Assembly: GCA_003353825.1 (NCBI GenBank)
Contig: PIVW01000259.1
Coordinates: 1-8,156, forward strand
Source: Chloroflexota bacterium
Lineage (GTDB): Bacteria > Chloroflexota > Anaerolineae > J102
Direction of reading: 5' to 3'
DNA: 8,156 nt
Shown: positions 998 to 7,869 of the stretch, piece by piece
Layout: the number at the start of each line of letters is the position of its first letter
How positions within the stretch are numbered: the first letter of the stretch is position 1
Position numbers and translations under genes: made by a program
Notes under the pieces: generated by a model
The model's database searches: none
What the model saw: the letters and a program-made list of their open reading frames with translations, nothing else
Told to the model about the DNA's origin: nothing

Positions 998-2413
998 CTA
1001 CTCATTCTCCTCCAGTAGTGCTTCGATTAACTGTTGAAACACCTCGTAGGGTTGAGCACCACTTACAAATTGGCCGTTGATAAAGAAAGCGGGCGTGCCC
1101 GTTACCCCTGCCTGAACACCTTCATTCAGATCGGAGCTAACCTCTTCGGTGTAGCGGCCGCTATCCAGACATTCATCGAAGGGTGCGGTATCCAGGCCCA
1201 ATTCTTCGGCGTAGGACTTAAAGATATTGACAGCGTCGGGATTCTGATTCCAATCCGCCTGCTGACCCTGGAACAAGCGATCGTGCATTTCCCAGTAGCG
1301 TTCCTGTTCCCCCGCACATTCTGCTGCTTCCGAGGCCTTCGGAGCTTGTGGATGAATGCCGGTAATGGGAAAATCCTTGAATATGTATCGCACGTTGCCG
1401 GTGTCGACGTATTGCTCGATGATTTTTGGCATGGCCTGCTCGAAGTGACGCAGGCAGAACGGACACTGGTAATCTGAAAACTCGTAGATGGTGATGGGAG
1501 CATCTGCATCACCGCGCATGGCGGTTGTTTCGGGATCGAAATCAGTGTCGGGTGTGGGTGATGGCACAGTTGTGACTACTGAATCGGGCAGTTCACCTGT
1601 TTCAGACTCGACGATTAACGCATCTACCATCGCCATGAACTGCTCCGTTGGGAGCAATCCCCCAACAATGTGACCATTTAGGATAAATGTTGGTGTACTC
1701 TCAGCACCAAACGTCCGACCTTCGTTATAATCTTCTCGGACAATGTCCAACGGTGCTTGCCCATCAAAGCAAGCATCAAACGCGTCGCCGTCCAATCCCA
1801 GGTCTCTGGCTCCCGCTTTAACGTTGGTAAGTGCATCACCACTCCGCCACTGGCTGACATTGTTGAACAGCCAATCATGCATGTCCCAAAATTGATCCTG
1901 TTCGGCGGCGCACTGACCAGCAAAACTGGCGATGACCGAGGCGTCACCTAAAATGGGATATTCTTTGTAAACAAAGTATACCTTGCCTGTGTCGATATAC
2001 GCTTCTTCCAGAAGCGGAGCGGTTTCGCTAAAAAAGCGACCGCAATAAGATCAGATATAATCTGACCACTCGTAGATTACCACCGGCGCGTTGGGGTCGC
2101 CTTTGCTGCTGGCTGGTCTGAGCGCAGGATCGAAATTCTCAACTTGAGGAGGCAGTACAAGGGGTCTGGCAACAGCCGGAGCTGGTGTTGTTTTGGGTTC
2201 AACTTGAACATCGCTTGCTGACGCTTTAAGCGTCGCTGCTGGTTCGGGGCTGGTGGTAGCTGATCCCAAGTCTGACTCCGTCGCTATGGCGGTTAATGTC
2301 GCCTGAACGGCGGCTTCAACATCAGGCTGGGAACCTTGTGGGGGCGGTGCGGTACACCCGGTGATCAGTAACAGCATGAGCAATACGAGAACAAATAGGG
2401 TCGGAATGCGCAT
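998..2413 (-). CDS. Tandem DsbA-like thioredoxin-fold lipoprotein; predicted selenoprotein (UxxC in domain 1, CxxC in domain 2)
   Basis: This is a predicted extracytoplasmic thiol oxidase or isomerase, lipid-anchored, made of two DsbA-like (Thioredoxin_4 type) domains in 471 residues. The ATG at 2413 is chosen because AAGGAG sits 6 bases upstream (2425-2420) and the protein then starts with a signal peptide ending in the lipobox LITGC, followed by a Pro/Ala/Thr-rich linker. Domain 1 begins VVIYEWSDYI, then an in-frame TGA at 2053-2051 (residue 121), then SYCGRFF. Reading continues in the same frame with family-typical sequence through the STPTF cis-Pro loop (Pro241). Domain 2 has SDYQCPFC (Cys317, Cys320) and TGTPAFFING (Pro441). 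The TGA exactly replaces the first, nucleophilic Cys of CxxC, so selenocysteine is the best reading. A nonsense mutation is the alternative, which would leave a 120-residue stub. The gene lies 73 bases after the DUF3105 gene. Confidence 0.85.
2000..2043 (-). promoter_or_regulatory. Candidate SECIS-like hairpins after the dsbA-like UGA
   Basis: Two stems follow the TGA at 2051-2053 on the minus strand. Stem A (2043-2019) pairs GCGGT with ACCGC and CGCT with AGCG around a UUUUU loop, with a 2-base AA bulge. Its loop begins 17 bases after the UGA, which is a good position, but it lacks the G expected in the first two loop bases. Stem B (2016-2000) pairs CGCTTC with GAAGCG around TGGAA. It has the loop G, but the loop starts 41 bases after the UGA, somewhat far. 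Neither is a perfect match to the bacterial SECIS consensus. Confidence 0.35.
2051..2053 (-). other. In-frame TGA at the nucleophilic Cys position (predicted Sec121)
   Basis: Codon 121 of the DsbA-like gene is TGA in the context Asp-Tyr-Ile-[TGA]-Ser-Tyr-Cys-Gly. The equivalent place in domain 2 of the same protein is Asp-Tyr-Gln-Cys-Pro-Phe-Cys. There is no other stop in this frame from 2413 to 998. Confidence 0.8.
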
Positions 2414-2486: not shown

Positions 2487-3110
2487 CTATTGAGCGTGAT
2501 GGTCAATGCCTCGGTACGCCTTGATAAAGTTCGTGATCCGCTGTTCATCAAATTCTTCAAGCCGGTCAATTCGGTTCCAGGCAGTGAGGGCGATACGTGT
2601 TTCCATGTCGGAATAAGGCGCCATTACCAGACCGTCCTCACCTTTATCACTGACGATACCCTCGAGCTGTGCTACTAACTCCGGACATCCCTCGGGGCAG
2701 TCAAACCATAGTCCGACGCCACCATCTTCGAGATTGTGAATCTGACGGCCTTCCGGGACGGGCTCGTCATAAACTCCCCAGGGCAAAATGCTGCCCAGGT
2801 GGGGACCCGATGTCGGTGGCCGGGAATTGTATTCAAATGCTTCAACCTCCGCTTCACCAACATGGGTATTACCCTGTGTTAGCACAAGTTCACCTGGCCG
2901 CTTGAACATGCCTTGACCAACAACAAAGACAAGTAATCCAATCAATACGACACCAACGGCAATTAACGTATAAGTACGCATCTTACGCTTGCGTTCACGA
3001 GCGGCGCGCGATGTCTGACGGCGCGAGGCTGCCGTGGAGGATTTTTGGGTGGTGACGGTTTCTGAAGTTGGGGATGCTTTCTTTGAACCGGCGCGGCGTT
3101 TCTTGGTCAT
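2487..3110 (-). CDS. DUF3105 membrane-anchored protein
   Basis: This 207-residue protein of unknown biochemical function belongs to the DUF3105 family. A Lys/Arg/Ser/Thr-rich cytoplasmic N-terminus (residues 1-46) precedes one membrane span (about 47-66, YTLIAVGVVLIGLLVFVVG), so the conserved domain lies outside the membrane. The family signature is visible: RPPTSGPH (98-104), WGVY (111-114) and IHNLEDGGV (124-132). Where the family usually has Leu-Glu-His-Gly-Gly-Val, this protein has Asp in place of His. A CPEGC pair (Cys138, Cys142) follows, a possible metal or redox site, and these cysteines are ordinary TGC/TGT codons. The ATG at 3110 is preceded by AAGGAG at 3126-3121. It lies between the thioredoxin (26 bases upstream) and the DsbA-like gene, so it is probably co-transcribed and may assist extracytoplasmic thiol or metal chemistry. 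That last point is inference from neighbours only. Confidence 0.85.
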   Translation of the reverse strand: MTKKRRAGSKKASPTSETVTTQKSSTAASRRQTSRAARERKRKMRTYTLIAVGVVLIGLLVFVVGQGMFKRPGELVLTQGNTHVGEAEVEAFEYNSRPPTSGPHLGSILPWGVYDEPVPEGRQIHNLEDGGVGLWFDCPEGCPELVAQLEGIVSDKGEDGLVMAPYSDMETRIALTAWNRIDRLEEFDEQRITNFIKAYRGIDHHAQ

Positions 3111-3135: not shown

Positions 3136-3540
3136 CTAGGGTCCAATGGCGGTTTCAACGGCATTGACGATTTCCTCCCGAGATAAAACACCGGGACGCT
3201 TCCAGAGGATATCTCCCTGGGGATCGATCATGATGATAGTGGGATGGCCACGTACCTGGTAGGCTCGGGCTGCCAATCGGCCTTCTGGTTCATCGACATC
3301 CAGATGTTGAAAGGCAATCCGTTCGCCATACTCTGCTTCAAGCCCATTCACGATGGGCGTCATTTGCTCTCAAGCGGGTCAGGGGGCGTACCAGAGGAAT
3401 ACAAAACTGGGTTGACCCTCGGCAATGCCTGGTGGTGTGGGCACAGCCTCATTGCTATCGTTACTGCTACAGGCTGCCAGAAACGCCACAGCAAGCGTCA
3501 ACAGAGATAGATACAGGACGCTATATTTGAATCGAGACAT
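3136..3540 (-). CDS. Lipoprotein thioredoxin; predicted selenoprotein with UxxU active site
   Basis: This is a predicted extracytoplasmic thioredoxin-fold redox protein of 134 residues. From the ATG at 3540 it starts MSRFKYSV, with a hydrophobic signal ending in the lipobox FLAAC (Cys24), then a short linker and the thioredoxin core FVFLWYAP. Two in-frame TGA codons follow, separated by Pro-Ala (3379-3381 and 3370-3372, residues 54 and 57), then EQMTPIVNGLE. The rest is canonical: HLDVDEPEGRLAARAYQVRGHPTIIMID with the cis-Pro loop at His-Pro-Thr, and a C-terminal helix. Spacing fits CxxC exactly, so the motif is read as U-P-A-U. Reading TGA as Trp would leave no redox residues. An ATG at 3546 in the same frame is an alternative start, and neither has a clear ribosome binding site. 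The gene follows the cytochrome c by 58 bases and precedes the DUF3105 gene by 25. If the TGAs were true stops, the protein would end before its active site. Confidence 0.85.
3342..3358 (-). promoter_or_regulatory. Candidate bacterial SECIS hairpin for the UxxU thioredoxin
   Basis: On the mRNA strand GCCCAT (3358-3353) pairs perfectly with ATGGGC (3347-3342) around a 5-base loop CGTGA. The loop has G at its second position, as bacterial SECIS elements require. It starts 18 bases after the second TGA and 27 bases after the first, so one hairpin could serve both codons. CAA (3366-3364) and TTG (3341-3339) could extend the stem below a 5-base bulge. Confidence 0.6.
3370..3381 (-). other. TGA-CCC-GCT-TGA: both CxxC cysteine codons replaced (predicted Sec54 and Sec57)
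   Basis: The two TGA codons are spaced exactly like the two cysteines of a thioredoxin CxxC motif, with Pro-Ala between them, directly after the conserved Trp-Tyr-Ala-Pro strand end. No further in-frame stop occurs before the TAG at 3136. Confidence 0.8.
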
Positions 3541-3598: not shown

Positions 3599-4084
3599 TT
3601 ACGAACCCGGCAGTGGATATTGCTGACTCATTTCAGACTGGAGCTGGCGCTGTTCTTCAGGCCATAAAATCTTAATGTAGTCCAGAACTGCGACAATCTC
3701 TTCATCATTCAATATTTCTGCAAACGCCGGCATATTACTCGTAAAGTTGGGGATATTTAGGCTGTCGCCGCCGCCTTTGATGATCGCAAAGAGTGTGCCA
3801 TCACCATGATGCCAGGTATGACCATCGACTGTATGCGGTGGTGCAGGATAGGTTCCATCTTCCTTGGGTGTCTTCCAATTTGGTTCCCCTTCGCCGTTGA
3901 GTCCATGGCAGGATGCACAGCTAGCATTATAGATGGCTTCACCGTCAGTTTTAAGTGCGATTTCAGGGTCGCGTCGGTCGGTGGTATAATCCGTTGGACT
4001 GCAGGCGGCTAACAACAAAATGGCGCCCATAAACAAGATAATTCCATACGCTCGCTTGCTGCGCAGATATCCATTTCCCCACAT
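3599..4084 (-). CDS. Lipoprotein c-type cytochrome (single haem)
   Basis: This is a predicted membrane-anchored, extracytoplasmic electron carrier of 161 residues. The ATG at 4084 gives MWGNGYLRSKRAYG, then a hydrophobic signal and the lipobox LLAAC (Cys28). The haem-binding motif CASCH (Cys56, Cys59, His60) follows GEAIYNAS, a typical class I cytochrome c entry. The probable distal ligand is Met118 in SNMPAF, and the C-terminal helix reads EEIVAVLDYIKILWPEEQR. The region between the haem site and the Met includes several His residues (HTVDGHTWHHGDG). The start lies one base after the stop of the SHOCT gene, so translation is probably coupled. The open frame extends further upstream, but that part is the SHOCT gene in another frame. 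It may pass electrons from the thiol-redox proteins encoded next to it, which is inferred only from position. Confidence 0.88.
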   Translation of the reverse strand: MWGNGYLRSKRAYGIILFMGAILLLAACSPTDYTTDRRDPEIALKTDGEAIYNASCASCHGLNGEGEPNWKTPKEDGTYPAPPHTVDGHTWHHGDGTLFAIIKGGGDSLNIPNFTSNMPAFAEILNDEEIVAVLDYIKILWPEEQRQLQSEMSQQYPLPGS

Positions 4085-4468: not shown

Positions 4469-4909
4469 TTACTCTTCGTCATCAAACAAGTTCAACTGGT
4501 CTATTCGCCGATCTTCACTTTCTTGACCCTGTATGTACGGCCGGATCACGGCCTCTTCTAGGCCAACTGTCGATACGTAGTAGCCTCTCGCCCAGAAGTG
4601 CTGGCCTCGAAAGTTCCGTTTCCAACCCATGTAGTTCCGGGCTATGTGGATTGCACTCTTGCCTTTGACATATCCGACCACCTGAGAAATCGCATATTTC
4701 GGGGGAATCGAGATCAATATGTGCACGTGGTCCATCAGCATCCGCCTCTCTATAATCTCGCATTCTCGATGCCTTGCCAGATCACGCAACACTGGCCCTA
4801 GCTCTCGATGCAATTCTCCAAACAGATGCTTCTTGCGATACTTCGGTATCCATATGATGTGGTACTTGCAGTCCCATTTTGTGTGCGCTAGACTTCGTAA
4901 CTGAGCCAT
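4469..4909 (-). CDS. tnpA: IS200/IS605 family transposase TnpA (Y1, HUH)
   Basis: This single-strand DNA transposase makes and rejoins nicks at the hairpin ends of its element. The 146 residues match the usual family length. The N-terminal strand reads WDCKYHIIWIPKYRKKHL, the metal-binding HUH motif is DHVHILI (His61, Val62, His63), and the nucleophile is most likely Tyr125 in the RPYIQGQ segment near the C-terminus, after GYYVSTVG. All are intact, so the enzyme could be active. The start is supported by AAGGAG at 4922-4917, 7 bases before ATG 4909. It is the only gene in the element, so any ancestral tnpB has been lost or was never present. It is a mobile passenger, unrelated in function to the redox cluster it interrupts. 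Confidence 0.95.
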   Translation of the reverse strand: MAQLRSLAHTKWDCKYHIIWIPKYRKKHLFGELHRELGPVLRDLARHRECEIIERRMLMDHVHILISIPPKYAISQVVGYVKGKSAIHIARNYMGWKRNFRGQHFWARGYYVSTVGLEEAVIRPYIQGQESEDRRIDQLNLFDDEE

Positions 4910-6502: not shown

Positions 6503-7190
6503 CCAGGCTCAACCTCGAAACGATAGCCCACACCTCGCACAGTCACTATAGGCAGAAGACCTGAGTGGATAGCCTCGATTTTCTTGCGTAAGCGGCCGAT
6601 GTGAACATCTACTACCCGGGCGTCGCCGTAATAGTCATAGCCCCATACGTGCTCGATCAACTGTTCTCGACTGAGCACCCGGCCATGGTGACGAACCAAA
6701 GCATACATTAGGTCAAATTCGATTGGCGTGAGTTCGAGCTGCGTATCATCGATCCAAGCTTGCCTGGCCCCAGCATCTATCCTGGCCGGTCCTAGCGTGA
6801 GCGAGGGCTCCAGGCGCTCAACACCTCGCCCTCGCCTTAATATGGCTTGAACACGAGCTACCAGTTCGCGAGGGCTGAATGGTTTGGTTAGATAGTCGTC
6901 GGCTCCCATCTTCAGCCCTACGACTTTATCGGTTTCCTCCGAGCGGGCTGTGAGCATCAGTACGTAAGTATCCGATTCCTGGCGTAAGCGTTGTAGTACT
7001 TCTAGACCATCGAGACCTGGAAGCATGATGTCTAGGATGACGAGGTCCGCGAGAATGAGCGGAAAGCCTGTATCGCTGCTAGCCCATCCGCAGCTGTGAA
7101 TACCTGATAGCCCTCTTTCTGCAGATAAGAACACACGGTATCCCGAATGGTATGCTCGTCGTCAACGACGAGAACCGTTGCTTTATGCAT
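6499..7190 (-). CDS. OmpR/PhoB-type response regulator, frameshifted by a probable one-base deletion
   Basis: This DNA-binding response regulator is the partner of the adjacent kinase. From ATG 7190 it begins MHKATVLVVDDEHTIRD (acidic pair Asp10, Asp11). After residue Ser47 the frame breaks near 7048-7049. Adding one C there gives FSPDLVILDIMLPGLDG without a gap, with the phospho-accepting Asp54, LTARS, KPFSPREL, and the C-terminal winged helix ending GYDYYGDARVVDVHIGRLRKKIE and VRGVGYRFE. The restored protein would have 230 residues, normal for the family. As written, translation stops at a TAG at 7034-7032, and the downstream part (from about 7134 in the second frame) lacks the receiver N-terminus. 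A sequencing or assembly indel is the simplest explanation, and a real loss-of-function mutation is possible. The stop TGA (6501-6499) overlaps the kinase start. A strong promoter lies just upstream (7233-7261). Confidence 0.88.
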
Positions 7191-7368: not shown

Positions 7369-7869
7369 CTATACTTCTCCTGTTATTGATTCTGCTGTTG
7401 TCAGATTTTCAAACGGTTCGATATCTTCCCCTGTCGAATCATCGTCGCTCGTGAACACGACTATCATAGCGATGGTTATGATCAAAAACGCTGTAAGAGC
7501 CAAAAATGGAATGGTTACGAATCCAAACCAATTGATCCAAGTTGTGGTACAGGGCGCTCCAGCAGTGCAGACAGTACTGCTGGTAAACAAGTCTGTCTTT
7601 TGTAGTAAATAATGGTATGTAGAGACACTAATCCCCAGAAGTGAGAATGGCAGTACAAAGTATGGCGCATCCTCATCCAAAAACCTGATGATGATGATCA
7701 TCAGTAGTATGACCGTCAGTGGATACATTAGAATGCGCTGATACCAACATAATTTACAGGGGATAAAACCGGCTACTTCACTGAAATAGAGGCTGCCCGC
7801 CATTGCGATCACTGCTGCCGCCAAAGCAATGTACAGACTTATTTGGGTGGTTCTATTGTCGTATCTAAT
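7369..7869 (-). CDS. Disulfide bond formation protein DsbB/BdbC-like
   Basis: This is an integral membrane thiol oxidase that re-oxidises DsbA-type proteins and passes electrons to quinone. Four hydrophobic segments are visible, with the family signature [17 protein letters not shown] after the first span and the second cysteine pair in [25 protein letters not shown]. Cysteines are 38, 41, 101 and 107 if counted from an AUU start at 7869. That AUU is preceded by GAGAGG at 7881-7876 with 6 bases between. The only conventional in-frame start is a TTG at 7824, which would cut off the front of the first span and has no ribosome binding site. A TGA at 7914-7912 and a TAA further up close the frame. 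The C-terminus is acidic and cytoplasmic. Its presence alongside a DsbA-like lipoprotein suggests that it is the oxidant for the cluster, though it is separated from it by the two-component genes and the insertion sequence. Confidence 0.9.

What the first reader, a model, noticed from the sequence alone, without database searches (positions are those of the whole stretch)
3136..3540. Lipoprotein thioredoxin with both active-site cysteines encoded by TGA (UxxU)
Seen: a continuous frame from ATG 3540 to TAG 3136 encodes a lipobox signal and a full thioredoxin core, interrupted only by two TGA codons at 3379-3381 and 3370-3372. They occupy exactly the two cysteine positions of CxxC (U-P-A-U). Known: Sec frequently replaces catalytic Cys in thioredoxin-fold proteins, and UxxU motifs are rare but reported (SelL family). 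Inference: this is a di-selenocysteine extracytoplasmic thioredoxin, possibly forming a diselenide. Two random nonsense mutations hitting just these two codons and nothing else would be an unlikely coincidence. Standard gene callers would report only the fragment after the second TGA, so the gene is easily missed.
Basis: partly seen in the sequence, partly recalled or inferred. Interest (0 to 1): 0.95.

Follow-up and report, generated by a model that had tools for sequence, protein, structure and literature searches.

The report
Bacterial thioredoxin with two selenocysteines
This gene and 33 relatives read here in Chloroflexota genomes encode a thioredoxin with a lipoprotein-type signal in which both active-site cysteine codons are TGA, predicted to be read as selenocysteine with the help of one conserved RNA hairpin that would serve both codons, and the relatives listed from protein databases are almost all fragments cut off at those codons.

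Summary
Minus-strand frame 3540-3136 encodes a lipobox signal and a thioredoxin fold, broken only by TGA at codons 54 and 57, the two active-site cysteine positions (UPAU). It is not a local accident: I read 33 further UxxU genes in 28 Chloroflexota genomes, all TGA at both positions, plus UxxC and CxxC relatives. A 6-bp hairpin follows the TGAs in one register: 33 of 34 UxxU genes form 5 or 6 of its pairs, four of six pairs covary across 32 aligned TGA sequences, and its codons CCC ATC GTG AAT GGG are identical in 11 of 11 genes that are 26-38% identical to the window's protein. The loop lies 26 and 17 nt after the two UGAs, both within the published bacterial SECIS range, so one SECIS probably serves both. 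SelB is found in 23 of 28 UxxU genomes, tRNA-Sec in 10 of 15 tested. Against: SelB is similarly common in genomes without the gene; two UxxU genomes lack all four sel genes and a third lacks selA and selB; three of eleven CxxC relatives still form 5-6 pairs or a fossil hairpin. Inventories seen list UxxC, not UxxU, thioredoxins. Selenium insertion, diselenide and reductase role are inferred.

The parts
3136..3540 (-). UxxU thioredoxin gene with lipobox signal; TGA at codons 54 and 57
3379..3381 (-). first TGA (codon 54), at the first Cys position of CxxC
3370..3372 (-). second TGA (codon 57), at the second Cys position of CxxC
3342..3358 (-). hairpin GCCCAU-CGUGA-AUGGGC, predicted SECIS for both TGAs (loop 26 and 17 nt after them)
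3469..3471 (-). lipobox Cys codon (codon 24, LAAC)
   Evidence: Cys invariant in 11 of 11; acylation not tested
2487..3110 (-). DUF3105 protein, next gene downstream
   Evidence: recurs in 4 of 10 loci
998..2413 (-). protein with lipobox and two DsbA-type domains; in-frame TGA at 2053-2051 (USYC) in domain one, CPFC in domain two
3599..4084 (-). c-type cytochrome with lipobox, next gene upstream (start codon chosen by me)
   Evidence: recurs in 6 of 10 loci
7369..7824 (-). DsbB-type membrane protein, farther upstream

Best explanation
The gene encodes a thioredoxin with a lipoprotein-type signal whose two active-site codons are TGA and are predicted to be translated as selenocysteine by SelB and tRNA-Sec, with one conserved downstream hairpin likely acting as the SECIS for both codons. 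Shown here: the two TGAs, their conservation at exactly the CxxC positions, the covarying hairpin 17 and 26 nt downstream, a thioredoxin-fold model, and Sec machinery in most host genomes examined. Inferred: both codons become Sec; the protein is anchored outside the cytoplasmic membrane; its redox centre cycles between diselenol and diselenide; and it likely reduces extracytoplasmic disulfides or oxidised thiols, with the neighbouring Dsb-type protein and c-type cytochrome as the most likely partners. UxxU appears to have arisen once, within a family that switches often between UxxC and CxxC.
For: TGA at both positions in 34 of 34 UxxU genes read, from 28 genomes plus the window. UxxC and CxxC relatives align at the same columns. 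Hairpin: 95.8% of cells paired in 32 TGA sequences against 10-50% when slid, four pairs changed on both sides, 0 of 500 shuffles as high for paired cells, two-sided cells and covariation score. Hairpin residues P62-G66 use one codon each in 11 of 11 genes while other invariant residues use 2-5. Geometry fits the bSECIS model quoted in PMC13188914. SelB in 23 of 28 UxxU genomes; tRNA-Sec in 10 of 15, all ten named SeC(tca) by ARAGORN; six full-length SelD genes in these genomes themselves hold one TGA. TGA still ends other genes of the window. Fold model pLDDT 89.3 with E. coli thioredoxin as best PDB match. Purifying selection between L003 and L004, dN/dS 0.14.
Against: G003 and G004 show none of SelA, SelB, SelD or tRNA-Sec, G432 no SelA or SelB. 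SelB is not clearly enriched: 15 of 19 family members with UxxU against 27 of 42 without it found, and 307 of 400 in the phylum sample. Two of five covariation measures are not exceptional in the 32-row set (pairs changed on both sides 36 of 500, further pair types 248 of 500). The window hairpin alone does not fold better than shuffles (z -0.5 and -0.3), and 10 of 32 hairpins are weaker than -7.5 kcal/mol on their own. Of 11 CxxC relatives scored, three form 5 or 6 pairs, and the xGU loop is also found in 3 of 3 late-added CxxC relatives, so the loop letters do not discriminate. No protein evidence. The window's own genome could not be searched.
Confidence: 0.84

Rival explanations
1. The TGAs are read by something other than the Sec machinery, for example as cysteine by a suppressor or near-cognate tRNA-Cys, giving an ordinary CxxC thioredoxin.
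For: G003 and G004 keep UxxU genes but show no sel genes; G003 has a second, divergent tRNA-Cys(GCA) whose T-arm resembles that of tRNA-Sec.
Against: No UCA-anticodon tRNA among the 45 tRNAs found in G003. Most UxxU genomes have SelB and the hairpin is kept as a SECIS would be. TGA is a stop elsewhere. That the second tRNA-Cys reads UGA is speculation.
Confidence: 0.07
2. Only one of the two UGAs is read as Sec efficiently; the second acts as a selenium-dependent brake or stop, so that much of the product is truncated.
For: Two UGAs in a row should lower yield (inference); UxxC relatives use the same hairpin for the first UGA alone.
Against: The reading frame after the second TGA is conserved, including the cis-Pro (P100) in 35 of 35 rows, so read-through product is selected for.
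Confidence: 0.06
3. A pseudogene or sequencing error with two nonsense codons.
For: The window's response-regulator gene seems frameshifted near 7100, and one UxxU relative, L167, has a shifted C-terminus.
Against: The same two codons are TGA in 33 other genes, with frozen hairpin codons and dN/dS 0.14 in the one pair tested.
Confidence: 0.01

Closest known systems
Selenocysteine thioredoxin, UxxC (PF00085), and thiol:disulfide interchange protein, UxxC (PF13098), as listed in PMC13188914
   Same: Thioredoxin domain with Sec at the first active-site position; PF00085 and PF13098 both match the window protein
   Different: Those entries are listed as UxxC with one Sec (passages); here both positions are TGA
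Prx-like thiol:disulfide oxidoreductase with UxxC/UxxU (PF00578) and the GOS Prx-like 2 family with UxxU
   Same: Bacterial selenoproteins with UxxU (passages)
   Different: Peroxiredoxin-like families; the window protein matches thioredoxin families and thioredoxin structures
SelL of aquatic animals (Shchedrina 2007; paper not held, recalled)
   Same: UxxU motif; a diselenide reported there, by the paper's title as printed in a reference list
   Different: Called Prx-like in PMC2398784; eukaryotic decoding with a 3' UTR SECIS (recalled)
DsbG-like / Thioredoxin_4 (PF13462) selenoproteins, UxxC
   Same: Fits the window's second TGA protein (PF13462 match, USYC)
   Different: Single Sec; a different protein from the finding
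Extracytoplasmic thioredoxins ResA and StoA
   Same: Membrane-tethered thioredoxins outside the cytoplasm (recalled); NCBIfam matches to ResA in 6 of 11 members and StoA in 3 of 11
   Different: Window member scores 22.6 bits against a ResA cut-off of 170; the Cys pair is TGA here

Membership tests
Thioredoxin fold / Pfam Thioredoxin | Profile match over the curated cut-off | tested here: met
   PF00085 34.4 bits, cut-off 23.5; PF13098 30.2, cut-off 27
Thioredoxin fold / Pfam Thioredoxin | Thioredoxin fold with redox motif at the start of helix 2 and a cis-Pro | tested here: met
   Model pLDDT 89.3, helix 55-71; E. coli thioredoxin E 8.5e-9; P100 in 35 of 35 rows. That P100 is cis was not measured
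NCBIfam thioredoxin TIGR01068 (equivalog) | Score over the curated cut-off | tested here: not met
   39.1 bits against 96.8
Bacterial selenoprotein | In-frame UGA aligned with Cys in homologs | tested here: met
   CxxC, UxxC and UxxU rows in one alignment
Bacterial selenoprotein | bSECIS: 3-9 nt loop, 4-16 bp stem, G in first two loop positions, 16-37 nt from UGA, MFE at most -7.5 | tested here: met
   Window: 5 nt, 6 bp, G at position 2, 26 and 17 nt, -7.7 kcal/mol. 10 of 32 sequences miss the energy limit on the hairpin alone
Bacterial selenoprotein | SelA, SelB, SelC, SelD in the same genome | tested here: inconclusive
   Window genome not held. Relatives: SelB 23 of 28, tRNA-Sec 10 of 15, none of the four in G003 and G004
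Bacterial selenoprotein | Selenium in the protein | not testable with these tools
   Needs mass spectrometry or 75Se
Lipoprotein | Hydrophobic signal ending in a lipobox Cys | tested here: met
   LAAC in the window; C24 invariant in 11 of 11; no signal-peptide program run
SelL | Membership in the Prx-like SelL family | not tested
   No SelL sequence was compared; only the UxxU motif is shared

The most novel reading that the evidence does not exclude
A clade of Chloroflexota thioredoxins has moved its whole redox centre from sulfur to selenium: a diselenide thioredoxin outside the cell membrane, made by a single SECIS that recodes two UGAs nine nucleotides apart, present in up to three copies per genome and in hundreds of database entries that hold only stumps of it; and in one lineage (G003/G004) it persists without any recognisable selenocysteine machinery.
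Probability: 0.6. Interest if true: 0.88.

Novelty: new variant of a known kind. Interest (0 to 1): 0.8.

Why it matters
The selenocysteine thioredoxins in the inventories I saw replace one cysteine. A conserved family that replaces both offers a natural test of what a diselenide thioredoxin is for, and of how one SECIS can serve two UGAs nine nucleotides apart. It also points to a systematic annotation error: of the 120 best database relatives listed (of 572), 118 are fragments of 73-86 residues. The genomes that keep the gene without detected Sec genes make a sharp test case for how UGA is decoded.

Tried and rejected
Genome-wide TGA reassignment: rejected, since TGA ends the kinase and response-regulator frames of the window. 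Pseudogene or error: rejected by conservation. Rfam scan of the window: no match up to E 5. No tRNA in the window. Plasmid collection: two weak thioredoxin hits; the phage and E. coli collections were not searched. Viral contigs: 0 exact matches to the double-TGA/hairpin pattern. Co-occurrence of SelB and UxxU: no clear excess over the base rate. Folding the window hairpin alone: no better than shuffles. UCA-anticodon tRNA in G003: none among 45 tRNAs, but only 150 of 159 first-look candidates were scored and Ala-TGC and Ile-GAT are missing. In G004 only 17 tRNA loci were read (19 tRNAs). tRNA-Sec searches scored 150 first-look candidates per genome. The SelL paper is not held. PMC7609411 held the searched terms only in its reference list.

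Full report
Observation. On the minus strand, ATG 3540 to TAG 3136 is one frame of 134 codons with TGA only at codons 54 and 57; read as U the motif is WYAP-U-PA-U-EQM. Codon 24 is the Cys of a LAAC lipobox. Pfam Thioredoxin fits the read-through protein (34.4 bits, cut-off 23.5). ARAGORN finds no tRNA and Rfam no RNA in the window.

Relatives. A protein search with the read-through sequence returned 8 entries among 26 candidates, the window's own fragment included; all are 74-79 residues and begin at the Met after the second TGA. A profile of 17 such C-terminal pieces returned 572 entries at E 1e-6 or better among 1388 candidates (41-131 residues by the tool's length rule); of the 120 listed, the window's own included, 118 are 73-86 residues and the other two 99 and 128. 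I take this as the family being cut at the TGAs by gene callers; the DNA behind most of these entries was not read. A scan of genome contigs gave 10 loci, all Chloroflexota MAGs by title. In all 10 the two codons are TGA: UPQU, UTPU, UPRU, UPRU, UPPU, UPPU, ULPU, ULPU, UVPU, UAPU. A profile search of 400 Chloroflexota genomes gave matches in 263; the 30 places with loci were read. Six are UxxU (one is the L005 gene again), the others UxxC (16, one of them UxxS) or CxxC (8). Later searches, one of them over 61 genomes of the family of G003, bring the count to 34 distinct UxxU genes: the window's and 33 in 28 genomes, three each in G004 and G006.

One origin. On a 35-row tree (16 of the 34 UxxU genes) with the active-site columns removed, UxxU needs one change (support 76/73; 75% of bootstrap trees), UxxC needs 7 and CxxC 6. 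The support is moderate and two end branches are long. The window groups with L001 (93/83).

The SECIS. Eleven genes whose proteins are 26-38% identical to the window's share CCC ATC GTG AAT GGG without a substitution. P62, I63, V64, N65 and G66 use one codon each in 11 of 11, while C24, P44, L67, G98, H99, P100, G109 and G117, also invariant, use 2-5 codons. The block forms xCCCAU-CGUGA-AUGGGy. In 32 TGA sequences (16 UxxU, 16 with TGA at the first position only) 95.8% of cells pair, against 10-50% when slid; four of six pairs show changes on both sides; no shuffle of 500 reaches the paired fraction, the two-sided cells or the covariation score, but 36 of 500 reach the number of pairs changed on both sides and 248 of 500 the number of pair types. 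Relatedness can inflate the shuffle test; the slid control keeps it. UxxU alone: 97.9% paired, three two-sided pairs, 1 of 500 shuffles as high. Over all 34 UxxU genes, 29 form six pairs, 4 form five and 1 four. UxxC: 21 scored, all with five or six. CxxC: 11 scored, forming 5, 3, 3, 2, 6, 1, 1, 3 and 3, 5, 4, so the hairpin is usual in TGA genes and uncommon but not absent in cysteine relatives. The loop begins xGU in 34 of 34 UxxU genes, but also in the 3 CxxC relatives checked for it. The bSECIS model as quoted in PMC13188914 (passages) asks for a 3-9 nt loop, a 4-16 bp stem, a G in the first two loop positions, 16-37 nt from UGA, and at most -7.5 kcal/mol. The window has 5 nt, 6 bp, G at position 2, 26 nt from UGA1 and 17 nt from UGA2, and -7.7; 10 of 32 hairpins are weaker than -7.5 on their own. 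The window hairpin is not unusual against shuffles; the case rests on conservation and covariation. UxxC relatives keep the same register, so a second UGA was apparently added under an existing SECIS, 9 nt closer to it (inference).

Machinery. In the ten genomes of L001-L010, SelB is over cut-off in 8, SelA in 7, SelD in 7, and tRNA-Sec(UCA) is found in 6. Six full-length SelD genes contain one TGA themselves, an internal sign of Sec use. Over the 28 UxxU genomes SelB is found in 23. tRNA-Sec was sought in 15 and found in 10, all named SeC(tca) by ARAGORN. Of the five without SelB, G395 and G433 have SelA and are probably incomplete; G003, G004 and G432 have neither. SelB is common anyway: 307 of 400 in the phylum sample, and in the family sample 15 of 19 genomes with UxxU against 27 of 42 without one found. 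Co-occurrence is therefore consistent with, not proof of, Sec decoding.

The anomaly. G003 has contigs up to 2.7 Mb and 45 tRNAs, yet none of SelA, SelB, SelD or tRNA-Sec and no UCA anticodon. G004 also lacks all four but holds three UxxU genes, one with a shifted C-terminus. The gene they share is under purifying selection (dN/dS 0.14 at dS 0.30) and keeps the hairpin. Missing contigs, recent loss or another decoder remain open. G003 has a second tRNA-Cys(GCA) with a T-arm like that of tRNA-Sec; that it reads UGA is speculation. Conversely G441, in which no SelB was found, has a CTTC relative that still carries CCC ATC GTG AAT GGG, which looks like a fossil SECIS after a return to cysteine.

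Structure and setting. The AlphaFold2 model (35-row alignment, cysteine in place of Sec) has pLDDT 89.3 and thioredoxin topology; helix 55-71 starts at the motif. Foldseek puts E. coli thioredoxin first (E 8.5e-9); spinach thioredoxin m has TM 0.81 by target length. Downstream lie DUF3105 and a lipobox protein with two DsbA-type domains, upstream a lipobox cytochrome c, farther off a DsbB-type protein. The cytochrome recurs in 6 of 10 loci, DUF3105 in 4, the DsbA-type protein in 3; several loci are cut by contig ends. The DsbA-type protein has its own TGA at the first Cys of domain one (USYC); domain two has CPFC, and L001 has Cys at that place. I infer an extracytoplasmic thiol-redox locus, with the UxxU thioredoxin as a strong, oxidation-tolerant reductant. 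That a diselenide is more reducing than a disulfide is general knowledge, recalled.

What is known. The 2026 and 2022 inventories (passages only) give UxxU for a Prx-like oxidoreductase, a metal-binding protein or mercuric reductase and, in 2026, an FmdB-like protein; thioredoxin (PF00085) and the PF13098 protein stand in the 2026 table as UxxC with one Sec. The GOS study (passages) reports UxxU in a Prx-like 2 family. 'Chloroflex' does not occur in the main text of these three. A 2006 study counts 3 selenoproteins in Chloroflexi (passages). The listings of searches (titles and abstract openings) show no UxxU thioredoxin; the library lacks most subscription journals. NCBIfam has no model over its cut-off for the window member. 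Hence a new variant of a known kind.

Noticed in passing
window 2053-2051 (within 998-2413, minus strand): A second in-frame TGA at a redox Cys: DsbA-type domain with USYC, aligned with CPFC in the second domain; two hairpins follow (z -2.8) but the loop with G is about 40 nt away, outside the usual SECIS range.
   Followed up: partly
G003, G004 (L003, L004, L155, L156, L161, L167): Genomes that keep UxxU genes but show no SelA, SelB, SelD or tRNA-Sec.
   Followed up: partly
L143 (G003:C3:267850-268020): A second, divergent tRNA-Cys(GCA) with a T-arm close to that of Chloroflexota tRNA-Sec.
   Followed up: partly
L187 (G441): CTTC thioredoxin relative that keeps the CCC ATC GTG AAT GGG block in a genome where no SelB was found: looks like a fossil SECIS.
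   Followed up: partly
L073, L075, L078, L079, L088 and other matches: Chloroflexota genomes also hold UxxC thioredoxins with hydrophobic N-termini; many weaker matches list one TGA and frames of 75-79 residues, so the phylum may have far more selenoproteins than the 3 counted in 2006.
   Followed up: partly
window 7190-6499 (minus strand): The response-regulator gene is split over two overlapping frames near 7080-7130, a likely frameshift or sequence error.
   Followed up: no
window 4469-4909 (minus strand): An IS200-type Y1 transposase gene between the cytochrome/SHOCT genes and the two-component genes.
   Followed up: no
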